A DNA stretch of 64,000 bases, from contig JAJCZU010000002.1 of the NCBI GenBank assembly GCA_029262235.1, forward strand, positions 248,001 through 312,000, written 5' to 3'. The notes beneath the pieces were generated by a model, which saw only the letters and a list, made by a program, of their open reading frames with translations, was not told the DNA's origin and did no database searches. The translations under genes and the position numbers were made by a program. Each line of letters starts with the position of its first letter. Within the stretch, counting starts at the first letter, position 1. The stretch comes from Candidatus Eiseniibacteriota bacterium (GTDB lineage: Bacteria; Orphanbacterota; Orphanbacteria; Orphanbacterales; Orphanbacteraceae). Below are positions 32,771 to 48,404 of this stretch, piece by piece.

Positions 32771-34543
32771 ATGAATCGAATTCATTTCCGAGCCGCCTCA
32801 GTGGCGTTGCTGCTGCCTGCCGTACTCGCGATCGTGCTGCTCTCGTGCGGAGATTCCGGCACGACCGGCCCGCCGACCGGCGACCGACCGACGGTGCGCG
32901 TGACCTCGCCGCGAGACCTCGACGCGATTGCGGGTGTCTTCGTCGTGGAAGCCGACATCGACACTTCCGTGATACGCGGAAACGAAATCATTCGCATTGA
33001 AGTCGTCGTCGACGGCGCTCCGGTGGTCGTCGACAGCATCCCTTACCCCGCGGCCTGGAACGGGGAACTCGCGTTCTCGCTCGACACCGAAATGCTGACC
33101 GAGGGAGGGCATGCGCTCCTCGTCCGCGCCACCGATCTGTCACTCAATCGATACAACTCCGCGTCGATCTCACTCACCGTTCAGAACCAGATCGTTTTCT
33201 CGCAGCATATTCAGCCGATCTTCCGTGCCACCTGCGCCGTCGCCGGGTGTCATGATCCGGCCACGCGCCAGAACGAACTGAACCTCTGGACATACGAGAG
33301 CATTCTGGAAGGATCGCAGCACGGTTCGGTCGTCGTGCCGGGAAATGCCGCGAAGTCGGCCATGATGTTCTTTATCGATTTCACCGAAGATCCGAACCTC
33401 CGTATGCCGCCGCCCTCGCAGGGGCCCGCGCTCAACAAGGCCGCGATCAGCCGCATTCGCAAATGGATTAACGACGGCCTGAAGAACGATAACGGCGATG
33501 AGCCGTTTGCGAACGTCACGGATCGCATCTTCAATACGAATCAGGGCGCCGACGCCATTTCCGTGATCGACCGCAATACGGGGCTTACGGTCCGCGTCGT
33601 GCCGGTCGGGGTCGACGAGAACGCGCCCGAGGTTCCGCATTTTCTGATCACAGACAATCACGATCCCGCCGAGTACTTCTACGTAACGCTGATCACGTCG
33701 GGCGAGCTTTGGAAGTTCTCCGCCGCCGACTACACCCTTCTCGACAAGCTCGATGTCGGCGACCAGCCCGCTCACGTCATTCTGACAGAAGACGGCTCGA
33801 CGGCGTTTGTGTCGAACTGGGTGACGGAAGGGGGGGCGAGCGGAACCATTCAGGTTGTCGACGCTTCCACGATGTCGCGCATCAAAGCGATTGATACCGG
33901 CGGTTCTCCGCACGGTATGCGGATCACGCATGATGAACCCTACACGCTCTTTGTCGGGAACAGCGGCACCGATAACGTCACCGTAGTCGATGTCGCCACG
34001 CAGTCGTTCGTAAAGACGTTTCCGCTTCTGCGCAATCAGGGCGAGTCCCTGAACCCGCTTCAGATCGCGATCGACCGCGAAGACCGCTACGCGTACGTCG
34101 CGTGTCACTTGAGTCATGAAGTACAGGTGTTCGATGTCGAAACGCACGAGGTCGTGAAGCGTATCGACCTGCGTCGCTTCCCCGGGGATGTCGTCGGCCC
34201 GTTTCAGCTCGAAGCGTCGCCCAGCCTCGACCTCGTGGTCGTCGCGAACCAGCTGAACAGTACCGTGTCGATCATCTCGACCGACTCGCTTGCGGTCGTG
34301 CGCACGATCGAGAGCGAGGACTTCGCCCAGTGTCACGGCGTCGATATTTCCGAAGACGGGGAGTATGCGTACATCACGAACGAGAACACCGACAGCGATG
34401 TGCCGCCGCACCATCCCACGGAAACCGGCGGGAATCCGGGGAATGTGGCTTTCGTGAACCTGACTACGTTCCTGGTAGACCGTGTCGTCGAAGTCGAAGA
34501 GGATCCCACGGGCATCAGCATCACCCCGGGGCGGGGAAACTGA
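32771..34543 (+). CDS. Lipoprotein with CX4CH cytochrome-like segment and YVTN/YncE beta-propeller
   Basis: Lipobox VLLSCGD; FRATCAVAGCHDPATRQ; SVIDRNTGLTVRVVPVG, VGNSGTDNVTVVDVATQSFVKTF. Confidence 0.75.
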   Translation: MNRIHFRAASVALLLPAVLAIVLLSCGDSGTTGPPTGDRPTVRVTSPRDLDAIAGVFVVEADIDTSVIRGNEIIRIEVVVDGAPVVVDSIPYPAAWNGELAFSLDTEMLTEGGHALLVRATDLSLNRYNSASISLTVQNQIVFSQHIQPIFRATCAVAGCHDPATRQNELNLWTYESILEGSQHGSVVVPGNAAKSAMMFFIDFTEDPNLRMPPPSQGPALNKAAISRIRKWINDGLKNDNGDEPFANVTDRIFNTNQGADAISVIDRNTGLTVRVVPVGVDENAPEVPHFLITDNHDPAEYFYVTLITSGELWKFSAADYTLLDKLDVGDQPAHVILTEDGSTAFVSNWVTEGGASGTIQVVDASTMSRIKAIDTGGSPHGMRITHDEPYTLFVGNSGTDNVTVVDVATQSFVKTFPLLRNQGESLNPLQIAIDREDRYAYVACHLSHEVQVFDVETHEVVKRIDLRRFPGDVVGPFQLEASPSLDLVVVANQLNSTVSIISTDSLAVVRTIESEDFAQCHGVDISEDGEYAYITNENTDSDVPPHHPTETGGNPGNVAFVNLTTFLVDRVVEVEEDPTGISITPGRGN

Positions 34544-34544
34544 G

Positions 34545-35846
34545 ATGATCCGGGGCGCACGCATTGAAATGTTCCCGGGCGCGCGCACTGCCGGGCTGCT
34601 GCTCCTCGCGAGTCTGGCAGTCGGCTGTGGTGATGACAAACCGAACGATTCCGGCCCGGGAGACACGACCGCAGCGACTTTCGCCCTGTCCGACTTTCAA
34701 TCCTCGACGGAATGTGCCGGCTGCCATCCCAACCACTACGAAGAGTGGAGCGGGTCGATGCACGCCTACGCCACACAGGACCCGATCTGGGTGGCGCAGA
34801 ATCGGCACGAGATCGAAGACCTCGGGCAGACCAGCGAAACCTTTTGCGTGCAGTGCCACTCACCCATCGGTTTTCTGACGGGCACCGCGAAAGGGGCCTT
34901 CGACGCCGCGGATCTCCCCGCGCTCGTGCTTGAAGGCATCACTTGCGATGCCTGCCATTCGATGGTCGATCCCGGGCTCGACAATCACGGCGTTTCAACC
35001 TATGAGCTGAATCCCGGCGTCACGAAGTACGGCCCGATCAGTGATCCGGAACGCACCACCGCCCATTTGTCCGAGGGCAGGGAGTTCTTCCGCACTTCGG
35101 ACCAGTGTCGCAACTGCCACAATCTGTTCGTCGATGGCGAGCCGTTCGAACCGCTCTGGACGGAGTGGATCGGCGCATTCTCCGCGATGGCGCGCGAGTG
35201 CCAGGACTGCCACATGCCGGCTTACACAGGGCAGGCAGCCGTCGGCGGGCCGACCCGCACCGTACACAGGCACGAGTTCACGGGAGTCGATCTCGCGCTT
35301 ACCGATTTTCCGAACCGGGGCCGCCAGCGCGCGCTCGTCGATTCGCTCATGAAGACCGCCGCGAAGATCGATTCGCTTCGTGTCGAGCCCCTCGATGGCG
35401 GCGACTCACTCGCCATCCGGTTCCAGGTGCAGTGCCTCACGGGACACAATCTGCCCGCGGGCACGTCGTTCCGGCGCGATGCCTGGCTGCACGTGGTGGC
35501 AGGCGCCGGCAGCGATCCTCATTTCGAGAGCGGCTATCTCGCCGAGGATGGCGATCTCGATCTGACGGATCCCGTCCTCGAACGCTTTTACGTCGAGTTC
35601 GAAGGCCGCACCGAACAGGGGCGCATCACATGGAACAACAGCCTCGCCCCGCTCGAAATCCGCCGCTACGAATACCGGATCCCCGTTCCCGATACGGACG
35701 GCCCGCTCGACGTCACGGCGTCGTTCCTGTTTCGCGCGCTCAAGCCGTCGTTCGTGCGCGACCTCGGGCATCCGGAATTCGCCACCGAAGAGTTTCTCCC
35801 CATCTTCACCATCGACGAAGAGAGCCTGACTTTCCTGCGCCCGTAA
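34545..35846 (+). CDS. Multihaem (5 CXXCH) cytochrome c lipoprotein
   Basis: Lipobox LAVGCGDD; ECAGCHP, FCVQCHS, TCDACHS, QCRNCHN, ECQDCHM. Confidence 0.88.
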   Translation: MIRGARIEMFPGARTAGLLLLASLAVGCGDDKPNDSGPGDTTAATFALSDFQSSTECAGCHPNHYEEWSGSMHAYATQDPIWVAQNRHEIEDLGQTSETFCVQCHSPIGFLTGTAKGAFDAADLPALVLEGITCDACHSMVDPGLDNHGVSTYELNPGVTKYGPISDPERTTAHLSEGREFFRTSDQCRNCHNLFVDGEPFEPLWTEWIGAFSAMARECQDCHMPAYTGQAAVGGPTRTVHRHEFTGVDLALTDFPNRGRQRALVDSLMKTAAKIDSLRVEPLDGGDSLAIRFQVQCLTGHNLPAGTSFRRDAWLHVVAGAGSDPHFESGYLAEDGDLDLTDPVLERFYVEFEGRTEQGRITWNNSLAPLEIRRYEYRIPVPDTDGPLDVTASFLFRALKPSFVRDLGHPEFATEEFLPIFTIDEESLTFLRP

Positions 35847-37083
35847 GCGCGCGCATGTCCGCGAGGAATCGATCGGCCCGGTGCAGGTCATGCGATCCCG
35901 CCGGCCACGCGTTCCACCTGAGCGCCACCACCGCCCCGCGATGAAATGCAGCTTCTGCCGTGAGTCGCTGACCGAGCACGCTCGCGGTTGATGCGAGTAC
36001 GGGCACGACATGGCCCCGTCGATTCGTGCGCACGAACTCCACTCTCCCCTGGACCTCAAAGAACGATCCCGGAAACAGGAGCCGCTGGTATTCTGTTTTC
36101 ACGAATGACAACGGAGTGCTCTCCTGCTCGACGATCCAGAAAGAGCGTGAGAGCGGCGAGGTGAGTGCGGCTCCCGCGTCCGACCAGACCGCCTCCAGCG
36201 TTATGACGTTGCGCCGTTTTCGGCCCGCAAGAAACGATCGCACGCCGGCACGTCCCCTCTCGTCGATCAGAATACCGAACAGCGCTGCATAATCGGAACC
36301 GTCGCGTCCCGCTGTGCCGCCGGCGCGCACCCCGTTCCCCGCGTCCGCGAAGAGTTCGACTGTCATGGCGTCTTCACACGGATGCGAAGCGAGTCGCGCG
36401 GCCACGAGGTACCGGGGGGCATGGCGACCGGGGCTCTCTTCCATCTGGTCGTTGCCGCGTTCCGGGGCAACGAATGCGACCTGTGCGCCGATGGACTCGA
36501 CTCCACGATAGAAAAGGGGCAGAAGGAGAGCGATCTCTCCGACGGGCGGGCCCGCTGTCACGCCATTCGTTTCACGAGGAGGTTTGCGCCATCGTCGGTT
36601 TCGCGAGCTCCCGCTCCGGGCCAGCCAGCCTCGCGCAAGCACGCGTTCGCCGAGCCGGAATGCGGAGTCGATACGAATTCGCAGCCCCGGTTCCCATGGT
36701 CGCCCCGGAAGCGTGCGCGGTTCGATGCCGCCCCGCACGGCCACTCCGTGCCTGCCGGTTACCTGGACATAAGTCCGGTCCGGGACGGAAATCGTGCGTG
36801 TTCGGAGGGAGCGAACGCCCGGAAGCGACTGCAGACAGTCAACGATCCGGGACGTCGGCATGCACGGGGAGTTCCGAGCACCGGCAAGAGTCCGGTACAA
36901 CGTGTGCGCGAGGCACGGGGGGAATCCGTGCACTGCGATCGTGTCCGGGGTTGGCGGTGCTGCCTGGGCCCGGGCCGTCGGTGCTGCCTGCGCGGCCGAC
37001 GGGTGGAACAGGCCCGCAACCGCCAGTGCGCCGGCGACACTTCCTGCATGGCTCGCGAGCGCGCCTGTCCATCGAGACATCAA
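35806..37083 (-). CDS. Secreted protein of unknown function, possible POTRA plus beta-barrel
   Basis: Signal-like N terminus; IAVHGFPPCLAHTLYRTL...LQSLPGVRSLRTRTISVPDRTYVQV resembles POTRA; beta-rich remainder; ATGA overlap with upstream gene. Confidence 0.5.
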   Translation of the reverse strand: MMSRWTGALASHAGSVAGALAVAGLFHPSAAQAAPTARAQAAPPTPDTIAVHGFPPCLAHTLYRTLAGARNSPCMPTSRIVDCLQSLPGVRSLRTRTISVPDRTYVQVTGRHGVAVRGGIEPRTLPGRPWEPGLRIRIDSAFRLGERVLARGWLARSGSSRNRRWRKPPRETNGVTAGPPVGEIALLLPLFYRGVESIGAQVAFVAPERGNDQMEESPGRHAPRYLVAARLASHPCEDAMTVELFADAGNGVRAGGTAGRDGSDYAALFGILIDERGRAGVRSFLAGRKRRNVITLEAVWSDAGAALTSPLSRSFWIVEQESTPLSFVKTEYQRLLFPGSFFEVQGRVEFVRTNRRGHVVPVLASTASVLGQRLTAEAAFHRGAVVALRWNAWPAGSHDLHRADRFLADMRALTGAGKSGSLRRW

Positions 37084-38495
37084 TGGATACGCACGACCCC
37101 GAGCGCAATGAGGAGTTCCCGCCGCGCCCCCGCTCCGGTCGAACGCTTCGTGTGAGTCAGGTCGATCACACCATCACCATCGACGTCCCTGACTCTGTAA
37201 TCGCACGCTTCCGTTTCGTCGCAGTGCCAGCGTGAAGTCTGCTTCGTCGCGAACGAGCTGCCGTCCGTCGTCTGGTTCAGGGAGAGCGTGTGGTCGGAAA
37301 CGATCAGCATGTCGCGCAGCCCGTCGGCGTTCCAGTCGCTCGCATCGTCGAAGCGAACCGGGGACCCGCGATCGTCGTTCCAGTCGGCCTGAACGGAGAA
37401 GTCTCCCTGTTCCCGGCGTACGAACACGCCGTCTTCCGTCTGCACGTAGAGCCGGGAGTGCACAGGGACAGTCCCGCTTGCAAGCGCACGCAGAATCGCG
37501 CCCGTTCCGGTTGCCGCCGTCTGCACACGCAAGTCGGCGAGACCGTCGCCGTCGCGATCGCAGGTCGGCAGAAGGCGTCCCCATGAGTCGAGCGTGAGGA
37601 CTTGATCGGGCAACGGGCCGCAGCCGGCGCCGTGATTTCGGTGTACCGCGACCGACAGATACGCATCGAGCGGATCCTTCGGTTCGCCTGCAACCACGAG
37701 GTCCGCGAGTCCGTCGCCTTCGAGATCGCAGACGGCAACCCGCACGATCTCGTCCGAAGCGCGATCCGATTCGGAACGCCTCTGGAAGGAGATGCGGACT
37801 TCCGCGCGGGGGCGGAACGAACCATCCTGCTCGCCCGTGTGCACGGCCAGGTCGGCTTCATCGATCACAATCAAATCGACGAACCCGTCATCGTTCCAGT
37901 GCGCGGGAACGACACGCGGCGATGTCACGATCATTCTCCTTCCCCGGACTTCCGTTAGCGCCCCGCCGGGAATGGAGAATCGTCCCGTCGCCGTGAAGAG
38001 CAGCAGAGAGTCGGAGGTGGGTACGGCGAACCCGCGCCACCCGGCCCCCCGTGCGGCGAACGGGAAAGGCAGGAGGACTTTCGCCGCCGCTCCGCAGGGC
38101 ATGCGCACCGGGTAAGCCGGAGCGAGCGAAACGCCCGCGCTTCCGTTCATGACAAGACGAAGCGAGTCGCGACCGGCGAGGAGCAGTGAGCTTGCGTTAC
38201 CGGTCGTGAACGAGTCGAGTACGTCTGCTACGACATGGGAGTCATCGACTGTGAACGAATCGGAGACGACCCAGGTGTTTCTGTCGGTCTGAAGGCGGAT
38301 CCGGATCGTTCGACCGTCGAACAGCATGAGATCGAGCATGCCGTCTCCGTTCCAGTCGCTGAGTTCCCAGCGAGCTCCTGCCGGAATCGGGATCCTGATC
38401 TCTTCGTCAATGTCCCAGCGATTCGCCGATGGGATTTCGTGCCCGATCTGCAGAGCCGCGAACAGGATCAGAGCGAACGCGCGCGACCCGGTCAT
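37080..38495 (-). CDS. FG-GAP/VCBS-type beta-propeller secreted protein
   Basis: Repeated DWNGDGMLDLML, HWNDDGFVDLIVI, DLEGDGLADLVV, DRDGDGLADLRV, DWNADGLRDMLI, DVDGDGVIDLT; signal-like N terminus. Confidence 0.75.
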   Translation of the reverse strand: MTGSRAFALILFAALQIGHEIPSANRWDIDEEIRIPIPAGARWELSDWNGDGMLDLMLFDGRTIRIRLQTDRNTWVVSDSFTVDDSHVVADVLDSFTTGNASSLLLAGRDSLRLVMNGSAGVSLAPAYPVRMPCGAAAKVLLPFPFAARGAGWRGFAVPTSDSLLLFTATGRFSIPGGALTEVRGRRMIVTSPRVVPAHWNDDGFVDLIVIDEADLAVHTGEQDGSFRPRAEVRISFQRRSESDRASDEIVRVAVCDLEGDGLADLVVAGEPKDPLDAYLSVAVHRNHGAGCGPLPDQVLTLDSWGRLLPTCDRDGDGLADLRVQTAATGTGAILRALASGTVPVHSRLYVQTEDGVFVRREQGDFSVQADWNDDRGSPVRFDDASDWNADGLRDMLIVSDHTLSLNQTTDGSSFATKQTSRWHCDETEACDYRVRDVDGDGVIDLTHTKRSTGAGARRELLIALGVVRIH

Positions 38496-39166
38496 GAGGC
38501 CGCGCTTTCCGCGGCGGCGCCCCGATCACGCGGCCTCTGAAACGCGCCGTCGGCCAGCTCGATGCGTCCCATCGGAAAAGTGGGCGCGCCGACGCCGTCG
38601 CATTGCACGATTACGATCGTGGTGTCCTCCAGGCGATGAATCTCGCGCAGCGTCGAGCCGAGCTGCGCCACCTGGTTACCGCTCAGATGGGAGAAAGGAT
38701 TTTCCAGAAGGAGAAGATCGGGGTGATGCGATGCGGCAAGCACCATGTTCGCAAGCCGGGCAGCGACGGGCGAGCGTGCCCCTTCGGCGCGATTCCAGCA
38801 GTCGCCGAGCCCGACCTCGACCGCGAGTTCGTCGGCATAGCCGGCATCGAACGAGTGAAGGCGCCCGCCGAGTCTCACGACATTTTCGCGCAGTGTCGCG
38901 CCTGCATGCCAGAAGGGTGTTTCGAATAGAATCCCCATCGACCGGAGGCAGTCGACACGATTGCGACGCATGTCTCTGCCGTCAACCAGTACGACTCCGT
39001 AGGTTGGTGCCAGCAGGCCCGTCAGAAGACGAAAGAACGCACTGCCTTCCTGAGCGCTCTGCGGGTGGATGAGAATGCGCGCCCCCTCTTCCCAGCGGTC
39101 GTTCAAAGGCCCGATCGCGAGATGGGGGCGATGCAGTGTGAGATCGATCAGATCGATTCGCGTCAT
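38492..39166 (-). CDS. Degenerate ABC-transporter ATPase domain protein
   Basis: FFRLLTGLLAPTYGVVLVDGRDMR, GILFETPFWHAGATLRENV, PDLLLLENPFSHLSG; Walker A replaced by SAQEGSA (no Lys); no TM. Confidence 0.65.
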   Translation of the reverse strand: MTRIDLIDLTLHRPHLAIGPLNDRWEEGARILIHPQSAQEGSAFFRLLTGLLAPTYGVVLVDGRDMRRNRVDCLRSMGILFETPFWHAGATLRENVVRLGGRLHSFDAGYADELAVEVGLGDCWNRAEGARSPVAARLANMVLAASHHPDLLLLENPFSHLSGNQVAQLGSTLREIHRLEDTTIVIVQCDGVGAPTFPMGRIELADGAFQRPRDRGAAAESAAS

Positions 39167-39635
39167 TCGGCGCGTTTCCTTTCGCTCGCGAGATTCGAAT
39201 CCAGTATCCGGTTGTGATCCAGGCGAAGCGTTTCGATGCGATTTCGACCCGTCCGAACGCGGGGTCGAACAGCCGTACTTGCTGCGGGTCCGCATGCTCC
39301 ACCACGACGAAGTGCTCCTCTTTCAGGTGCGCAATCGAAGGATGCGGAAACGGCGTGCTTCCCGAGCCGGAGAAGCGGCCGCCGCTGACGCGGAACCCCC
39401 GCCTCTCCGCCGCGTCGCGCAGACGGCCGAAGTTCGTGCCGCCATGCGGAAGGCGCACTTCCCGTGCGATGGCAGATTCGTCGGCAGCCTCGCCCTCACG
39501 TTCGATGAGATACGCGAGTGAGGCCGCGCCGCACGTGTCGTCGGCACGCTGGAGCCGCGCCGGATCCGTATCGAGCGGCTCGCCCGACATGTAGACGGCG
39601 ACTGTCAGGCATTGCCAGCGCGAGAAACAGATCAT
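38982..39635 (-). CDS. Stand-alone C39-like (double-glycine) cysteine peptidase
   Basis: DDTCGAASLAYLIEREG, HLKEEHFVVVEH, VRLFDPAFGRVEIASKRFAWITTGYW; C/H/D order of C39; start uncertain (ORF open to 39734). Confidence 0.7.
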   Translation of the reverse strand: MICFSRWQCLTVAVYMSGEPLDTDPARLQRADDTCGAASLAYLIEREGEAADESAIAREVRLPHGGTNFGRLRDAAERRGFRVSGGRFSGSGSTPFPHPSIAHLKEEHFVVVEHADPQQVRLFDPAFGRVEIASKRFAWITTGYWIRISRAKGNAPNDANRSDRSHTASPPSRDRAFERPLGRGGAHSHPPAERSGRQCVLSSSDGPAGTNLRSRTG

Positions 39636-39649
39636 GACGAGTAACGCTG

Positions 39650-39692
39650 CGGAAAAAACGAGGCGGAGGGGGAGGGCGAACCCCCTCCGCCT
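39650..39692 (-). terminator. Intrinsic terminator between peptide gene and C39 gene
   Basis: Minus strand AGGCGGAGGGGG-TTCGCCCT-CCCCCTCCGCCT perfect 12-bp stem, then CG-TTTTTT. Confidence 0.85.
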
Positions 39693-39714
39693 GCCGGTTG
39701 GTGGAGTTCCGCGG

Positions 39715-40029
39715 TCAGTGCTGCGGCTCTTCACCGCATTCTTCGTCGCCGCCGGGGATCAGGTCGAGAATGGCCCGCAGGATCTTGCGAACCCAGTTCC
39801 ACCATCCTCCCTCCGCCGCGGCGAGATCGGCCGGGAACGCCGTTCCCGTGACCCCGATTTCTGTGAGATCGGCTCCGATCCGCGTAAGGTCCCGCGCGAT
39901 CACCGCCTCGCATTCCGGTACGCGTTCTGCCATGACCGTCACCGGGTGACCATCGATCACGGGATGCGGACTCCAGGCAGTCATCCAGACAGTCAGGACA
40001 CAGAGTGTGATTCCCAGGAACGCTTTCAT
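39715..40029 (-). CDS. Small secreted peptide precursor (104 aa) with GG-WWNW C-terminal module
   Basis: MKAFLGITLCVLTVWMTAW... ...EGG-WWNWVRKILRAILDLIPGGDEECGEEPQH; SD AAGGAG; paralogous to next ORF. Confidence 0.75.
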   Translation of the reverse strand: MKAFLGITLCVLTVWMTAWSPHPVIDGHPVTVMAERVPECEAVIARDLTRIGADLTEIGVTGTAFPADLAAAEGGWWNWVRKILRAILDLIPGGDEECGEEPQH

Positions 40030-40056
40030 TGTCTCACTCCTTCTTTTGCTTTCCGT

Positions 40057-40272
40057 CTAAACAATCGGGAGAAGGGGACAGTCGTCGGGACGGAAATCCC
40101 GAAAGCAGTCCAGGAGCTTCTTGAGCCAGTTCCACCAGCCGCCGGTTGCGAGCTCCCAGTCGGCTGATTGGACGATCGGATCACTTCCGAGAAGTATGGG
40201 GGTGTCTGCCGAAGGCAAAGCGCCCTCCAGAATTCCAGCGATAGCCAACGTGATGAATGCAACCCGCAGCAT
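40057..40272 (-). CDS. Small secreted peptide precursor (71 aa) with GG-WWNW C-terminal module
   Basis: MLRVAFITLAIAGILEGALPSAD... ...TGG-WWNWLKKLLDCFRDFRPDDCPLLPIV; SD GAAGGAG at proper spacing. Confidence 0.75.
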   Translation of the reverse strand: MLRVAFITLAIAGILEGALPSADTPILLGSDPIVQSADWELATGGWWNWLKKLLDCFRDFRPDDCPLLPIV

Positions 40273-40500: not shown

Positions 40501-41280
40501 CTAGCGCAGGGCAAGCAGCTTGTGGCACTGGGGAATGACGCGAACATCGGAGAGTCGGCTGGACGCGATGCGGCACCAGTCGCGGAACTCGCCCTGCTCG
40601 GCGGGAGGCGCGGTGCCTTCCTGCGGCGTGACGGGCTGCAGGACGAACGGAATGTGCGGTGACTGCGCCGCCACGAGCTCGACGGCCTTTTCGAGGTCGG
40701 CCGGGTCGAGGCCGGGACCGGCCACCACCTTGACGAACAGCTTCGCAGGGAGGGCGTCGGCGATGGCGAGAAATCCGGCATGCTCGCGCCAGCGCGGCGC
40801 GTCGCCGGTGATGCTCGGCAGTTTGATGTCCATCGCGATCCATCCGATTCCCTTTTGCGGGAGCTGCGCGAGCGGCTTCGGAAGGTCACCGGTCGTCTCG
40901 AGATACACCGGCCCGAGCGTCGCGGCGGCTTTCGGAATGAACTCCTGCAGAAACGGGGCGTGAAGCAGCGGCTCTCCGCCGGTCAGGGCGACAGAATGAT
41001 GGGGGCCGGCACTCTCTTCGCGCGCGATCAGGAGCGCAAGAAGGTCAGCAGCGGTAACCGGGTTTGCGATGCGTTCGTCCGCGCCGTTGCCGGTTTCGAA
41101 AGCAAACGAGTCGGGCTGAAATCCTCTGGGCTGCCATGCGGTTACCGCTTCGGGAGTGTCGCAGTAGGAACACGTGCGATGACAGCCGTAAAAGCGAACG
41201 AAAAGCTGACGCTTTCCGAGCAGGAGCCCTTCGCCCTGAATCGAACTGAAGATCTCGAGGAGATGTGCCTGGGAGCGCAT
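40501..41280 (-). CDS. queE: 7-carboxy-7-deazaguanine synthase-like radical SAM protein
   Basis: EIFSSIQGEGLLLGKRQLFVRFYGCHRTCSYCDTPEAV (IQGEG plus CX3CX2C), ALTGGEPLLH. Confidence 0.85.
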   Translation of the reverse strand: MRSQAHLLEIFSSIQGEGLLLGKRQLFVRFYGCHRTCSYCDTPEAVTAWQPRGFQPDSFAFETGNGADERIANPVTAADLLALLIAREESAGPHHSVALTGGEPLLHAPFLQEFIPKAAATLGPVYLETTGDLPKPLAQLPQKGIGWIAMDIKLPSITGDAPRWREHAGFLAIADALPAKLFVKVVAGPGLDPADLEKAVELVAAQSPHIPFVLQPVTPQEGTAPPAEQGEFRDWCRIASSRLSDVRVIPQCHKLLALR

Positions 41281-41306
41281 CGCACAATGGTAGCAGACCG
41301 AGCGGC

Positions 41307-42026
41307 TTAAGGGGAGTCGACGAGTACCGGTTGCCAGGGGGAGGACTCGATCAGCGCCCCCGATTCGTCGAGGGCTGTAACATTCCACTGAACGGCCGGC
41401 GTCGTGATCCAGTCGATACCGCTTGTCGTCACCGGGAAGCGTACGAGAGCGGGGCGCGCCCCTTCGCCCGCGGGCGGTGCCGTGACCACGCTTTCGTGGA
41501 GGAGGGTGCCGTCGGATTTCTCGACGCGAATGCGATAGGAAGCGGCCGTCGGCTCGGCAGTCCATGAGAACGCGGTCGGGGCTTCGGTCAGCACGCCGCG
41601 CGGTGTAAAGGAATCGAAACCGCCCATGGCAGTCTCGCCACGGAACCGGGGGCCGTCTTCCGTAACGGAGTCGGTAGATCCGGGCCCGCTGCCGACTTCG
41701 GGGCGGGTCGTCCAGATTGCGATCAGCACGGCGGCCGCGACCGCGACGGCGGCACCCAGCGTCCATCCCCGCTTCCTGCGAAGGGGGGGGCGAGCGGCCG
41801 ATCGAGGGCGCGTGGCCGTGTCTGTAGTCCTGCCGGAACTCACCGAAGCTCCGGCGAGCGCGGTGTGCGTATTCACGTCCTGATAGAGCTCTTCGCTGCG
41901 CGCTTCGTCCCGCAGCACTTCGTTCTCGAACCGAGCCCGTTCTTCTCCGCGCAGTTCTCCCGCGATATAGCTTTCCATCGATTCGTTCCCGTTTCCGCTT
42001 CCTTCACGATCCTTCGCATCGTTCAC
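41307..42026 (-). CDS. Putative anti-sigma factor
   Basis: ESYIAGELRGEERARFENEVLRDEARSEEL, single TM; ATGA overlap with sigma factor. Confidence 0.65.
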   Translation of the reverse strand: MNDAKDREGSGNGNESMESYIAGELRGEERARFENEVLRDEARSEELYQDVNTHTALAGASVSSGRTTDTATRPRSAARPPLRRKRGWTLGAAVAVAAAVLIAIWTTRPEVGSGPGSTDSVTEDGPRFRGETAMGGFDSFTPRGVLTEAPTAFSWTAEPTAASYRIRVEKSDGTLLHESVVTAPPAGEGARPALVRFPVTTSGIDWITTPAVQWNVTALDESGALIESSPWQPVLVDSP

Positions 42027-42559
42027 GCCGTCACCCCTTCCTCCCGCATCAGTTCACGCAGCTTTCCCCGGCATCGGTAGATCCTTCGATAGAAGACCGC
42101 GGCGCGCAGCTTCTCTCTCTCGGCAACCTCGGCCGGCTTTTCGCCTTCCGCAAGGCGCTGGAGATAGCGCGCGCACTGCGGATCGGTCTCTTCGAGCGTC
42201 GCGAGGAGCGCATGGATCAGCGTCTCGCTTTCGCTTTCCTGCAGTGCTTCGAGCGGCGTTTTTCCATGCGACAAACCGTACGCCGTATCGATGTTCTGCT
42301 CGCGGCTTCGCGTGCGCCGCTTCTGATAGTGATTCCCGATCGTGTTCCGAAGCACCTGGAAGCACCACGCGAGAGGGGGAAGTCCGTCTTCTGTATCCCG
42401 CGAGAAAATGCCCTCCCGTTCGAACACGACCCGGAGCGCCTCCTGGACGACGTCTTCGACCGCGTCCGGCTCGACCCGGCGGCGCGCCAGAGACAGATAG
42501 CGCTGCCGCAGCGATTCGTACCAGCGGTTGCGCTCATTCGTGTTCGCGGCGCCGGTCAT
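42023..42559 (-). CDS. ECF-type RNA polymerase sigma factor
   Basis: YLSLARRRVEPDAVEDVVQEALRVVFERE...AWCFQVLRNTIGNHYQKRRTR...YLQRLAEGEKPAEVAEREKL. Confidence 0.85.
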   Translation of the reverse strand: MTGAANTNERNRWYESLRQRYLSLARRRVEPDAVEDVVQEALRVVFEREGIFSRDTEDGLPPLAWCFQVLRNTIGNHYQKRRTRSREQNIDTAYGLSHGKTPLEALQESESETLIHALLATLEETDPQCARYLQRLAEGEKPAEVAEREKLRAAVFYRRIYRCRGKLRELMREEGVTA

Positions 42560-42695
42560 GACGGGTATTTGGCACCGCGGAGAATCTCCCGCGTGCGATG
42601 AAAAACGGGGAGAACGGTGTCGCCTTGCGGGGCGAAGCGGGCGTGAGGCGTGCAATCGATGGGCGGGAGCTGCATGGTTCGATATTGCCAGATCG

Positions 42696-43778
42696 TCAAA
42701 GTGGCGGCAAGGCGCGTGTCCATGCCGCGCGCGTCACTTCTTCCGCGGGCTTGTCGCGCGGCGTGAAATCATGATTGGTCAGGCCGCCCCGGCCCCGTGC
42801 CAGCCAGTTCCACCAGAAGATACCGGCGAACCATTCGAGGTCACGGGTGGCTTCGAGAGCCCCGCGATAGAGGTCGGCCTGCTCGTCGAGATCGACGGTT
42901 CCGAGCGTCTCGAAATCGTAAGGGCGGCGGCCGGCGCCGTCGATCGATCGATAGCCGATTTCCGTAAACAGCACGGGCCGCCCGCGGAGAGCGGCCAGTT
43001 CCTCGAGTTCCTGGATGTAGAACTCCCAGCGCGCGGCGATATGCGCGCTGTCCGGATCGTCGACTCCCGCGACTGTTTCGTAGAAATCGACGCCCAGAAA
43101 ATCGAGGCTGCGCCAGAACTCGATTGCGAACGCCTCCTGGTAAGTCGCGGCGTACGTCAGGCGCCCTGAAAAGCGCGCACGGCAATCGGCGATCACATCT
43201 CGCCAGTCCGAATCACGATGCGAGAGCGAGCGAAATTCCGTGCCGACGAGAAAGAGATCCACTCCCTCGGCTTCCGCGAGGTCGAGCCACGGAAACAGGA
43301 AGTTACGGTACGATGCGAACCAGGCTTCGGGGTTTGCGGGGTCGAGATAGCCGCGCCATTCGCCCGTATCGAGATCGATATGTGGTTTCAGCGAAACGAC
43401 CAGTCCGCGCGACCGTGCCGCCCGGATGAGAGTGCGCACGTGCGCGGCATCGGGTGTCCGGGAGTCCCCGGTTCGGATCGTGCTCGCGGTGAGACGCGGC
43501 TGATATCCCGTGACGAGGATCGCGACATGGGTGGCGCCGGTGGCGGCGATTTCGTCCAGCATCGCGAGAGCCGTCGGCGATCCGTAGCCGTTCCGGGTCC
43601 AGTCGGCCAGCACGAACCCGCGCATATCCTCGGATGTCCCCGGCGGGGGGGGCAGCGGACCGGTGCCGCCGCTGCAGGCAAGCCCCAGCAGCAGCGCGGG
43701 CAGCGTCCCGCGCAGGGCGGGCAGCGTCCCGCGCCGCATTACGCGGACCCGCTTTCGAATCAGCCATCGGATTCCCAT
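42696..43778 (-). CDS. Putative glycoside hydrolase-like lipoprotein (GH113-like)
   Basis: Lipobox LGLACSGG; HIDLDTGEWRGYLDP, WLDLAEAEGVDLFLVGTEFRSL, FLGVDFYETV, VLFTEIGYRS. Confidence 0.65.
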   Translation of the reverse strand: MGIRWLIRKRVRVMRRGTLPALRGTLPALLLGLACSGGTGPLPPPPGTSEDMRGFVLADWTRNGYGSPTALAMLDEIAATGATHVAILVTGYQPRLTASTIRTGDSRTPDAAHVRTLIRAARSRGLVVSLKPHIDLDTGEWRGYLDPANPEAWFASYRNFLFPWLDLAEAEGVDLFLVGTEFRSLSHRDSDWRDVIADCRARFSGRLTYAATYQEAFAIEFWRSLDFLGVDFYETVAGVDDPDSAHIAARWEFYIQELEELAALRGRPVLFTEIGYRSIDGAGRRPYDFETLGTVDLDEQADLYRGALEATRDLEWFAGIFWWNWLARGRGGLTNHDFTPRDKPAEEVTRAAWTRALPPL

Positions 43779-45614: not shown

Positions 45615-48404
45615 ATGAAGGAAAGAGCCATGAAGCTCTCGGCCCTGGGGCAGAGCATCTGGTACGACAATATAGAGCGCGGCCTGATTCGCACGGGCGA
45701 GATGGCGCGGATGATTCGTGAGGACGGCGTCGTCGGGGTTACGTCGAACCCGTCCATTTTCGAAAAAGCGATCGGGGGCAGCTCCGAATACGATGAAGCG
45801 TTTCGCACGCTGGTCGATGGCGGCGCCGACGCGGACGCGATCTATCGGGCGCTCGTGCTCGAAGACATTCAAGGCGCGGCGGACCTTCTGCGGCCCGCTT
45901 ACGATCGCACGAAGGGGGGCGACGGCTATATCAGCATCGAAGTCTCGCCGCAGCTCGCGCACGAAACCGCGAAGACGATCGAAGCGGCGCGCGAGTGGTG
46001 GAAGTGGGTCGATCGTCCGAACGTGATGATCAAGATTCCCGCCACACCCGAAGGGATGCCCGCGATTCAGCAGGCAACGGCCGACGGGATCTCGGTGAAC
46101 GTGACACTGATCTTCACCGTGGGGCAATACGAAGACGTCGCGTCCGCTTATCTTGCCGGGCTCGAAGAACGGGTGGCCGCAGGCAAGCCTGTGGACGGCA
46201 TTGCGTCGGTCGCGAGTTTCTTCGTAAGTCGCATCGACTCGAAGATCGACCCGCGCCTTCCGGAAGACTCCGGGAGCCGGGGCCTCGTAGCGATCGCCAA
46301 CAGCAAGGTCGCGTACGAAGCATACAAGCGAATCTTCGCCGGCAAACGATGGGAGGCGCTTCACGGTGCCGGCGCGCGCCCGCAGCGCATGCTCTGGGCG
46401 AGCACGAGCACGAAGAACCCGGCCTATCGCGACGTATTATATGTAGAAGAATTGATCGGTCCGAACACCGTGAATACGGTTCCGCCGAAAACACTCGACG
46501 CGTTTCTCGATCACGGGGAGGCGAAGGCGACGCTCGAAGCCGGTGTTGCCGATGCGCATGCCGTTCTGAACGGGCTGGCCGGCGAGGGTGTCGATCTGGC
46601 CGCGGCGGGCGAAGAACTCCTGCGCGAAGGCGTGGCCTCTTTCGCCGCGTCGTTCGAAAAGCTCATGACGTGCATCGCGTTTCGACGCGAAGCCGTGCTC
46701 GAGGGAGATCCGCGCAAGGTCCGGTACGCACTCGGCGATACACTGCCCGATGTTGAGGCGCGCCTTGCGAAGCTGGCCGAGTCGAACATGGCGGCACGCA
46801 TCTGGGCGCGCGATCCCTCGGTCTGGCGCGACGACGAAGAGCATCGTGCCGTGATCGAGAACCGTCTCGGCTGGCTCGAAATCGTCCCGCCGATGCGCGA
46901 GGCGATTCCCGAACTCAAGAAGTTCGCGAAGTCCATCGTCGACGGCGGCTACAGGCACGTTCTTCTGCTCGGCATGGGAGGGTCGTCGCTCTGCCCCGAA
47001 GTGCTGCGCGAGACGTTCGGCCCGAAAGAAGGTTATCTCGACCTGCGCGTACTCGACAGCACGGATCCGGACGCGGTGGAGGGGGCGACGGAAGGGATCG
47101 ACCTCGACGAAACACTTTTCCTCGTGGCGTCGAAGTCGGGAACGACCACCGAAGTCAAAGCGTTCTATCAGTATTTCGCGTATCGCGTTCATGATCACAG
47201 CCGCTTCATCGCCGTGACCGATCCGGGAACGATTCTGAACAAGCTGGCGCGTGAGGAGCGTTTCCGAAAGACGTTCGTGAATCCGCCCGACATCGGCGGC
47301 CGGTATTCGGCGCTCTCCTATTTCGGCCTCGTGCCGGCGGCGCTTCTCGGGATCGATCTCGAAGCGTACCTCGATGACGCGCTGCGCATGTCACATGCGT
47401 GCGGCTCGTGTGTGCAGGCGGAAAAGAATCCCGGCATACGGATGGGCGCGGTGCTCGGCGAGGCGGCTCTTGCGGGTCGCGACAAGCTGACACTGCTTTT
47501 TTCTCCCGAGTTCGCGGCTCTCGGCAGCTGGGTCGAACAGCTCGTGGCGGAAAGCACGGGCAAAGAGGGCAAAGGTATCGTGCCCGTCGACGGCGAATCA
47601 CTCGGCACGCCCGATCAATACGGGGAGGATCGCATCTTCGTCTACACGCGATACGCGAACACGCGGGACACGGCCCAGGACGCGGGCGTCGCGGCGCTCG
47701 AGAGCGCGGGGCATCCCGTCATCACGATCCAGGTCGAAACGCTCGAAGATCTCGCGGGCGAATTCTTTCGATGGGAAATGGCGACCGCGGTGGCGGGTGC
47801 GGTTCTCGGGATCGATCCGTTCGACGAACCGAACGTGAAGGAGTCGAAGGACCTGACGAAGGAACTGCTCGATGTTTTCGAATCGCAGGGGACGTTTCCG
47901 AAGGAGAAGCCGCTCGTGTCGCGCGGGGGGCTCGAGCTCTACGGTGACGACGAGTGGCGCGACCGCTGCGCGGGTTGCAGCGCGCGTGAAGCGCTGCAGT
48001 TTCACGTGGGGCGTGCCGAGGAGGGTGACTTCCTGGCGGTGCTTGCGTACCTGCCATCGACGCCCGCGATTCGCGCACAGATCGACGCGATTCGCGCGGC
48101 ATTGCGCGCCCGCACGAACTTACCCGTCACGGTCGGTTACGGGCCGCGTTTCCTGCATTCCACGGGCCAGCTCCACAAGGGCGGCACGAACAACGGCGTG
48201 TTTCTGCAGATCACGACGAAAGACGCATCCGATCTCGCCATCCCTGACTGGAAGTTCGGTTTTTCGACGCTCAAACAAGCCCAGGCTCGCGGCGACTTTC
48301 AGGCGCTCACGAAGCACGGGCGACGTGTCGTGCGCGTGCATCTCGACGGCGACGCAAAAGAACTGCTGGCCGGTCTTGAAGACCGATTGAAAGGTGACCG
48401 TTAG
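45615..48404 (+). CDS. Bifunctional transaldolase / glucose-6-phosphate isomerase fusion
   Basis: TAL: GVTSNPSIFEKAI, NVTLIFTVGQYEDV, LWASTSTKNPAYRDVLYVEELI; PGI-like: LLLGMGGSSLCPEVL, SKSGTTTEVKAF. Confidence 0.93.
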   Translation: MKERAMKLSALGQSIWYDNIERGLIRTGEMARMIREDGVVGVTSNPSIFEKAIGGSSEYDEAFRTLVDGGADADAIYRALVLEDIQGAADLLRPAYDRTKGGDGYISIEVSPQLAHETAKTIEAAREWWKWVDRPNVMIKIPATPEGMPAIQQATADGISVNVTLIFTVGQYEDVASAYLAGLEERVAAGKPVDGIASVASFFVSRIDSKIDPRLPEDSGSRGLVAIANSKVAYEAYKRIFAGKRWEALHGAGARPQRMLWASTSTKNPAYRDVLYVEELIGPNTVNTVPPKTLDAFLDHGEAKATLEAGVADAHAVLNGLAGEGVDLAAAGEELLREGVASFAASFEKLMTCIAFRREAVLEGDPRKVRYALGDTLPDVEARLAKLAESNMAARIWARDPSVWRDDEEHRAVIENRLGWLEIVPPMREAIPELKKFAKSIVDGGYRHVLLLGMGGSSLCPEVLRETFGPKEGYLDLRVLDSTDPDAVEGATEGIDLDETLFLVASKSGTTTEVKAFYQYFAYRVHDHSRFIAVTDPGTILNKLAREERFRKTFVNPPDIGGRYSALSYFGLVPAALLGIDLEAYLDDALRMSHACGSCVQAEKNPGIRMGAVLGEAALAGRDKLTLLFSPEFAALGSWVEQLVAESTGKEGKGIVPVDGESLGTPDQYGEDRIFVYTRYANTRDTAQDAGVAALESAGHPVITIQVETLEDLAGEFFRWEMATAVAGAVLGIDPFDEPNVKESKDLTKELLDVFESQGTFPKEKPLVSRGGLELYGDDEWRDRCAGCSAREALQFHVGRAEEGDFLAVLAYLPSTPAIRAQIDAIRAALRARTNLPVTVGYGPRFLHSTGQLHKGGTNNGVFLQITTKDASDLAIPDWKFGFSTLKQAQARGDFQALTKHGRRVVRVHLDGDAKELLAGLEDRLKGDR

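What the first reader, a model, noticed from the sequence alone, without database searches (positions are those of the whole stretch)
35806..40272. Candidate undescribed secreted-peptide system: two GG-WWNW precursors + stand-alone C39 protease + lysine-less ABC ATPase + FG-GAP propeller + POTRA-like protein
Six consecutive minus-strand genes, mostly linked by overlaps or very short gaps. The layout (two tandem small signal-bearing ORFs with a shared C-terminal module, terminator, C39 peptidase, ABC-like ATPase, secreted/surface-type proteins) resembles a bacteriocin/RiPP export operon. It differs from known ones: there is no PCAT-type C39-TMD-ABC fusion, no ABC membrane domain and no obvious modification enzyme. 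Sequence shows the gene order and motifs; C39 and ABC family knowledge supplies the enzyme logic; operon function is inference.
Basis: partly seen in the sequence, partly recalled or inferred. Interest (0 to 1): 0.9.

Follow-up and report, generated by a model that had tools for sequence, protein, structure and literature searches.

The report
Lineage-specific C39 protease–peptide pair operon
A six-gene operon found in one genus of a small, little-sampled bacterial phylum probably makes two short secreted peptides that a membrane-anchored protease trims outside the cytoplasm, and it carries a conserved but catalytically dead transporter-type ATPase; the overall logic has precedents but this combination was not matched elsewhere.

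Summary
In detail: six minus-strand genes (40272-35806), mostly overlapping, encode two small ORFs sharing an ADxxxAxGG-WWNW(L/V)(K/R)K module, a stand-alone C39 peptidase, a degenerate ABC ATPase, an FG-GAP protein and an unassigned secreted protein. C39 is firm (PF03412, E 8e-16, all catalytic residues). In the one same-genus relative, C39, ABC, FG-GAP and ORF6 are syntenic; dN/dS is 0.12-0.15 for C39 and ABC. Walker A, Walker B, signature and H-loop residues are lost in both species, so it is a selected pseudo-ATPase. The other five phylum genomes lack the cassette. The GGWWNW motif scan of 85,000 species gave only nine hits, all chance. The POTRA label is unsupported. The peptides could not be checked in the relative because its contig starts inside C39. 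Best reading: N-terminally membrane-targeted precursors are cut after GG by a periplasm-facing C39, releasing WWNW amphipathic peptides. That is the logic of the published Neisseria Nap island and Pseudomonas FapD, not of a PCAT exporter. New variant of a known kind: the dead ABC subunit and the lineage restriction are the unusual parts. Cleavage, secretion and activity are inferred, not shown.

The parts
40057..40272 (-). pepA, 71 aa; N-terminal hydrophobic signal/anchor, GG at residues 44-45, candidate core WWNWLKKLLDCFRDFRPDDCPLLPIV (26 aa)
   Evidence: ORF and strong SD AAGGAG; hydrophobic segment residues 4-20; shared module with pepB; no family match
39715..40029 (-). pepB, 104 aa; N-terminal hydrophobic signal/anchor, GG at residues 74-75, candidate core WWNWVRKILRAILDLIPGGDEECGEEPQH (29 aa)
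   Evidence: ORF and strong SD; hydrophobic segment residues 3-19; core N-terminal 16 aa strongly amphipathic, 3 of 20000 shuffles as high
39661..39692 (-). terminator-like hairpin (12 pairs, 10 GC, then U-run) after pepB; candidate partial terminator setting a peptide:machinery ratio
38982..39734 (-). stand-alone C39 peptidase, 250 aa from GTG (alternative start ATG 39635 after the hairpin); one TM segment at residues 21-37 after RRR, C39 domain 61-184, unconstrained tail overlapping the ABC gene
   Evidence: PF03412 E 8.4e-16; dN/dS 0.145 and wobble in the C39 frame up to the ABC start only; TM
38492..39166 (-). pseudo-ABC ATPase, 224 aa; whole NBD length but Walker A, Walker B, signature and H-loop residues lost
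   Evidence: PF00005 22 bits; alignment; dN/dS 0.118
37080..38495 (-). FG-GAP repeat protein with N-terminal signal-like segment, 471 aa, likely extracytoplasmic beta-propeller
   Evidence: PF13517 E 1e-17, 4 stretches; hydrophobic N-terminus; 65% identical in the relative, dN/dS 0.29
35806..37080 (-). ORF6, about 424 aa from ATG 37080; signal-like N-terminus, beta-rich by inspection, no known family; fastest evolving of the four comparable genes
   Evidence: no Pfam, NCBIfam or PDB match; relatives in G001 only; dN/dS 0.42-0.48

Best explanation
A peptide-maturation operon that works without a peptidase-containing ABC exporter. pepA and pepB are inserted into or across the inner membrane through their N-terminal hydrophobic segments (inferred, Sec). 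The C39 protein, held by one N-in TM helix, faces the periplasm and cuts after GG, releasing two amphipathic peptides that begin WWNW. The FG-GAP protein and ORF6 act downstream in the envelope, as binding/assembly factor and possibly outer-membrane passage or immunity. The cytosolic pseudo-ABC protein is not a motor; it is probably a scaffold or regulator, perhaps paired with a canonical NBD. A terminator-like hairpin after pepB would keep peptides in excess over machinery. The end use (antagonism, signalling, or surface assembly) is open; a bacteriocin-like or autolysis-like toxin pair is my first guess. Shown: genes, C39 catalytic residues, motif loss, purifying selection, absence of any TMD. 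Inferred: topology, cleavage, secretion, function.
For: C39 is complete and under purifying selection. The two small ORFs are significantly similar to each other around an ADxxxAxGG-WWNW junction. They share acidic -8, hydrophobic -7 (W/L) and Ala -4 before GG, partly in line with the hydrophobic -4/-7/-12 rule reviewed in PMC10885120. The three proteins that would meet at the periplasmic side (pepA, pepB, C39) each have an N-terminal hydrophobic segment. This genome has no PCAT; its two other C39s are also extracytoplasmic-type proteins directly downstream of small signal-bearing proteins, PA2778/PA2779-like. Published precedent for periplasmic C39 with GG peptides and no PCAT: Nap island, PMC11798529; FapD, PMC5557850.
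Against: The peptides are not seen in the only relative, whose contig starts inside C39, so their coding status rests on one genome. If C39 starts at ATG 39635 the TM segment is mostly lost and the periplasmic location fails. pepA position -12 is V but pepB -12 is A, and -4 is only Ala, a weak fit to canonical leaders. Neither core is clearly cationic (net charge 0 and -3). No inner- or outer-membrane conduit is identified.
Confidence: 0.5

Rival explanations
1. Surface-assembly system: the small proteins are minor subunits or activators of an envelope structure (Fap-like fibre or an FG-GAP adhesin), and C39 cleavage triggers assembly rather than producing a free peptide.
For: FapD is a periplasmic C39 needed for amyloid secretion; the operon carries an FG-GAP repeat protein and a secreted unassigned protein; a weak FapD-model match (NF058616, E 0.11).
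Against: No low-complexity or repeat subunit of amyloid type in the operon; ORF6 has no sequence match to any solved structure, FapF included; cores are short and helix-like.
Confidence: 0.22
2. Remnant of a PCAT exporter: C39 and NBD are the two ends of a C39-TMD-ABC protein that lost its membrane domain, now decaying.
For: Order C39 then ABC matches a PCAT; overlap without an intervening C39 stop; C39's best NCBIfam match is the NHLM PCAT model.
Against: Both pieces are under strong purifying selection (dN/dS 0.145 and 0.118); no indels between species; the ABC protein's closest matches are stand-alone or ABC-2-type ATPases, not PCAT NBDs; a TGA directly before the ABC start in G001 excludes a frameshift fusion upstream of it.
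Confidence: 0.1
3. The small ORFs are not C39 substrates; they are small membrane or secreted proteins of other function, and C39 acts on an unlinked protein or on FG-GAP/ORF6.
For: Peptide ORFs unverified by comparison; C39 leaders are atypical; the strings GG and WWNW can occur by chance, e.g. WWNWL in the nearby GH113 enzyme.
Against: The similarity between the two ORFs centres on the GG-WWNW junction and includes the upstream ADxxxA; both have strong SDs directly upstream of C39.
Confidence: 0.18

Closest known systems
Neisseria nap island (NapA/B/C, NapP C39 peptidase, NapF; PMC11798529)
   Same: Several small GG peptides, a stand-alone C39 peptidase, no PCAT; model of periplasmic cleavage then outer-membrane exit
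   Different: Nap has a FapF-type channel, a putative regulator, holin-like and immunity-like genes; here a pseudo-ABC, an FG-GAP protein and an unassigned ORF6; no sequence relation of the peptides was tested
Pseudomonas Fap operon, FapD (PMC5557850)
   Same: C39 peptidase with Sec targeting acting in the periplasm, outside any ABC transporter
   Different: No amyloid-repeat subunits here; no ORF6 match in PDB; FapD model match only E 0.11
PCAT/AMS bacteriocin exporters (C39-TMD-ABC; TIGR03796, LahT, ComA)
   Same: C39 fold and catalytic residues; double-glycine site
   Different: No TMD, separate and catalytically dead NBD, precursors with hydrophobic N-terminal segments
PA2778/PA2779 pairs (NF033920/NF033919, DUF6627)
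   Same: Small signal-bearing protein immediately upstream of an extracytoplasmic C39; two such loci in this same genome
   Different: Those C39 proteins are 706-733 aa with TPR; the window C39 and peptides do not match these models

Membership tests
Peptidase family C39 (PF03412) | Profile match above curated cut-off with Q/C/H/D catalytic set | tested here: met
   58.4 bits against cut-off 22; Q62, C68, H141, D157 present and invariant in the relative
PCAT exporter | C39, transmembrane and ABC domains in one polypeptide | tested here: not met
   C39 and ABC separate, no multi-pass TM protein; fusion by frameshift excluded upstream of the ABC start in G001
ABC ATPase (PF00005), active | Walker A GxxxxGK, Walker B, signature, H-loop | tested here: not met
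   All replaced in both species: PQSAQEG/PQDSREG, LLLLENP, SPVAA, no H; 22 bits, below cut-off 25
Double-glycine leader peptides | GG (or GA/GS) preceded by hydrophobic residues at -4, -7, -12 | tested here: inconclusive
   GG present; -7 W/L; -4 A/A; -12 V/A
Omp85/POTRA protein (ORF6) | POTRA profile similarity | tested here: not met
   No Pfam match; local POTRA profile and hhalign negative. A fold-level match was not testable, model pLDDT 32
Nap/Fap-type periplasmic C39 system | C39 located in the periplasm | tested here: inconclusive
   TM segment after RRR if the GTG start is used; start codon unproven
Nap/Fap-type periplasmic C39 system | FapF-type outer-membrane channel in the locus | tested here: not met
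   ORF6 has no sequence match to any PDB chain at E<=5; a fold-level match could not be tested
Bacteriocin / toxin pair | Killing or signalling activity of the mature peptides | not testable with these tools
   needs synthesis and assay

The most novel reading that the evidence does not exclude
A lineage-specific peptide secretion system in which membrane-anchored double-glycine precursors are released by a periplasmic C39 protease, and a conserved, nucleotide-binding-dead ABC protein has been recruited as a non-motor component coordinating synthesis or export.
Probability: 0.25. Interest if true: 0.75.

Novelty: new variant of a known kind. Interest (0 to 1): 0.5.

Why it matters
If true, it adds a PCAT-independent route for double-glycine peptides in a phylum with almost no biology, makes the Nap/Fap logic look like a recurring design, and offers a clean test case for what a selected, catalytically dead ABC NBD does outside a transporter heterodimer.

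Tried and rejected
GGWWNW pattern across 85,462 species: nine hits, none in a small signal-bearing ORF and none with a C39 nearby. Peptides in the relative G001 and other family members: none found at protein or motif level; the WWNW matches fall in GH113 or spurious frames. C39-ABC frameshift fusion: rejected by a TGA directly before the G001 ABC start and by the switch of wobble position at the ABC start. PCAT decay: disfavoured by dN/dS. POTRA in ORF6: profile tests negative; the first of these included mis-oriented minus-strand sequences and was repeated without them. AlphaFold without alignment: pLDDT 32 (ORF6) and 34 (ABC), not interpreted. Defence-system models: none matched. Best outside C39 relatives G313 and G341 are also stand-alone with hydrophobic N-terminal segments but have unrelated neighbours.

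Full report
WHAT IS THERE. The window lies in a 4.47 Mb genome (G000, contig C2) whose phylum is represented by only 7 held genomes, all one family. Between a QueE-like radical SAM gene (ORF 40501-41766 -) and a convergent cytochrome c554-like gene (34482-35846 +) lie six minus-strand genes: pepA 40272-40057, pepB 40029-39715, C39 39734-38982, ABC-like 39166-38492, FG-GAP 38495-37080, ORF6 37080-35806. The last junctions are 4-nt-type overlaps, and pepA, pepB and ABC have clear Shine-Dalgarno sites.

THE PEPTIDES. pepA (71 aa) and pepB (104 aa) each start with a hydrophobic segment and share AD(W/L)xxxAxGG-WWNW(L/V)(K/R)K(L/I)L, allowing for gaps in the x positions. Local alignment score is 80, against a maximum of 58 in 5000 shuffles. 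The shared stretch differs mostly by synonymous or conservative codon changes, which argues for selection on protein. Putative cores are 26 and 29 aa, net charge 0 and -3; pepB's first 16 residues are exceptionally amphipathic and pepA's moderately so. Residues before GG fit the C39 leader rule only partly.

THE PROTEASE. PF03412 E 8.4e-16 with all catalytic residues. From the GTG start it carries RRR plus one TM helix, so the C39 domain would face the periplasm. A strong terminator-like hairpin (39692-39661) lies inside that reading; an ATG at 39635 after the hairpin would remove most of the TM. This is the weakest link in the topology.

THE PSEUDO-ABC. It aligns along a whole NBD but has lost the Walker A lysine and glycines, Walker B D/E, the signature glycines and the H-loop histidine, in both species. 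It is the weakest match covering most of the ABC profile among 45 in the genome. dN/dS of 0.118 shows that the dead version is maintained. Nearest relatives are ABC-2-type or stand-alone ATPases, not PCAT NBDs; this was judged from score lists, not from a tree.

CONSERVATION. In G001 (same genus) contig C609 carries C39-ABC-FG-GAP-ORF6 in the same order, with ORF6 continuing on C617 next to the same cytochrome gene. The contig begins inside C39, so the peptides cannot be seen; the G001 sequence next to GH113 differs from the window. In G002 the interval between the cytochrome gene and QueE holds a TPR lipoprotein and a different FG-GAP protein, and no C39/ABC/FG-GAP/ORF6 homologue was found in the five other family members. 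The block is therefore a genus-level insertion or replacement. An exact degenerate search of 85,462 species for the GG-WWNW motif returned nine chance hits; the tool warns that records of this genome itself may be left out.

FRAME ANALYSIS. Between the species there are no indels over C39-ABC. Wobble sits at C39 codon position 3 up to the ABC start and switches to ABC position 3 thereafter. The C39 tail that overlaps ABC is unconstrained. G001 has a TGA immediately before the ABC ATG, so a fusion by frameshift upstream is excluded.

HOW IT PROBABLY WORKS. See best explanation. Precedent: the gonococcal Nap island combines GG peptides with a stand-alone C39 (NapP) and an outer-membrane channel, with cleavage proposed in the periplasm (PMC11798529). 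FapD is an experimentally supported periplasmic C39 (PMC5557850). In this same genome two PA2778/PA2779-like loci also pair a small signal-bearing protein with an extracytoplasmic C39, so a C39 outside the cytoplasm is the local norm and no PCAT exists here.

LIMITS. One genome for the peptides; two for the machinery; no named taxon; no usable structural model; no functional data.

Noticed in passing
L050:5297-7874 and L051:6399-8929 (own genome, contigs C4 and C3): Two PA2779/PA2778-type pairs: small signal-bearing protein (DUF6627-like) directly followed by a 706-733 aa extracytoplasmic C39 with TPR-like repeats.
   Followed up: partly
window 39166-38982 and L025:437-900: The C39 frame stays open 60 codons (G000) and 153 codons (G001) into the ABC gene; synonymous shuffles reach this in 13% and 0.6% of cases, so the long overlap in G001 is unusual though its sequence is unconstrained.
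   Followed up: partly
window 42696-43778: GH113 glycoside hydrolase carries the string WWNWL, as do its homologues in G001 and G005; the WWNW string alone is not distinctive.
   Followed up: yes
window 41307-42655: Sigma-70 family factor and an overlapping downstream anti-sigma-like protein precede QueE; the same three-gene order occurs in G005 (L053:4442-6515).
   Followed up: no
L129:7947-8696 (G313) and L130:1127-1879 (G341): Stand-alone C39 proteins with hydrophobic N-terminal segments, nearest outside relatives of the window C39, next to a thioredoxin-like gene and near pilus-like genes respectively.
   Followed up: partly
window 45615-48404: Transaldolase fused to phosphoglucose isomerase in one 929-aa ORF (PF00923 + PF00342).
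   Followed up: no
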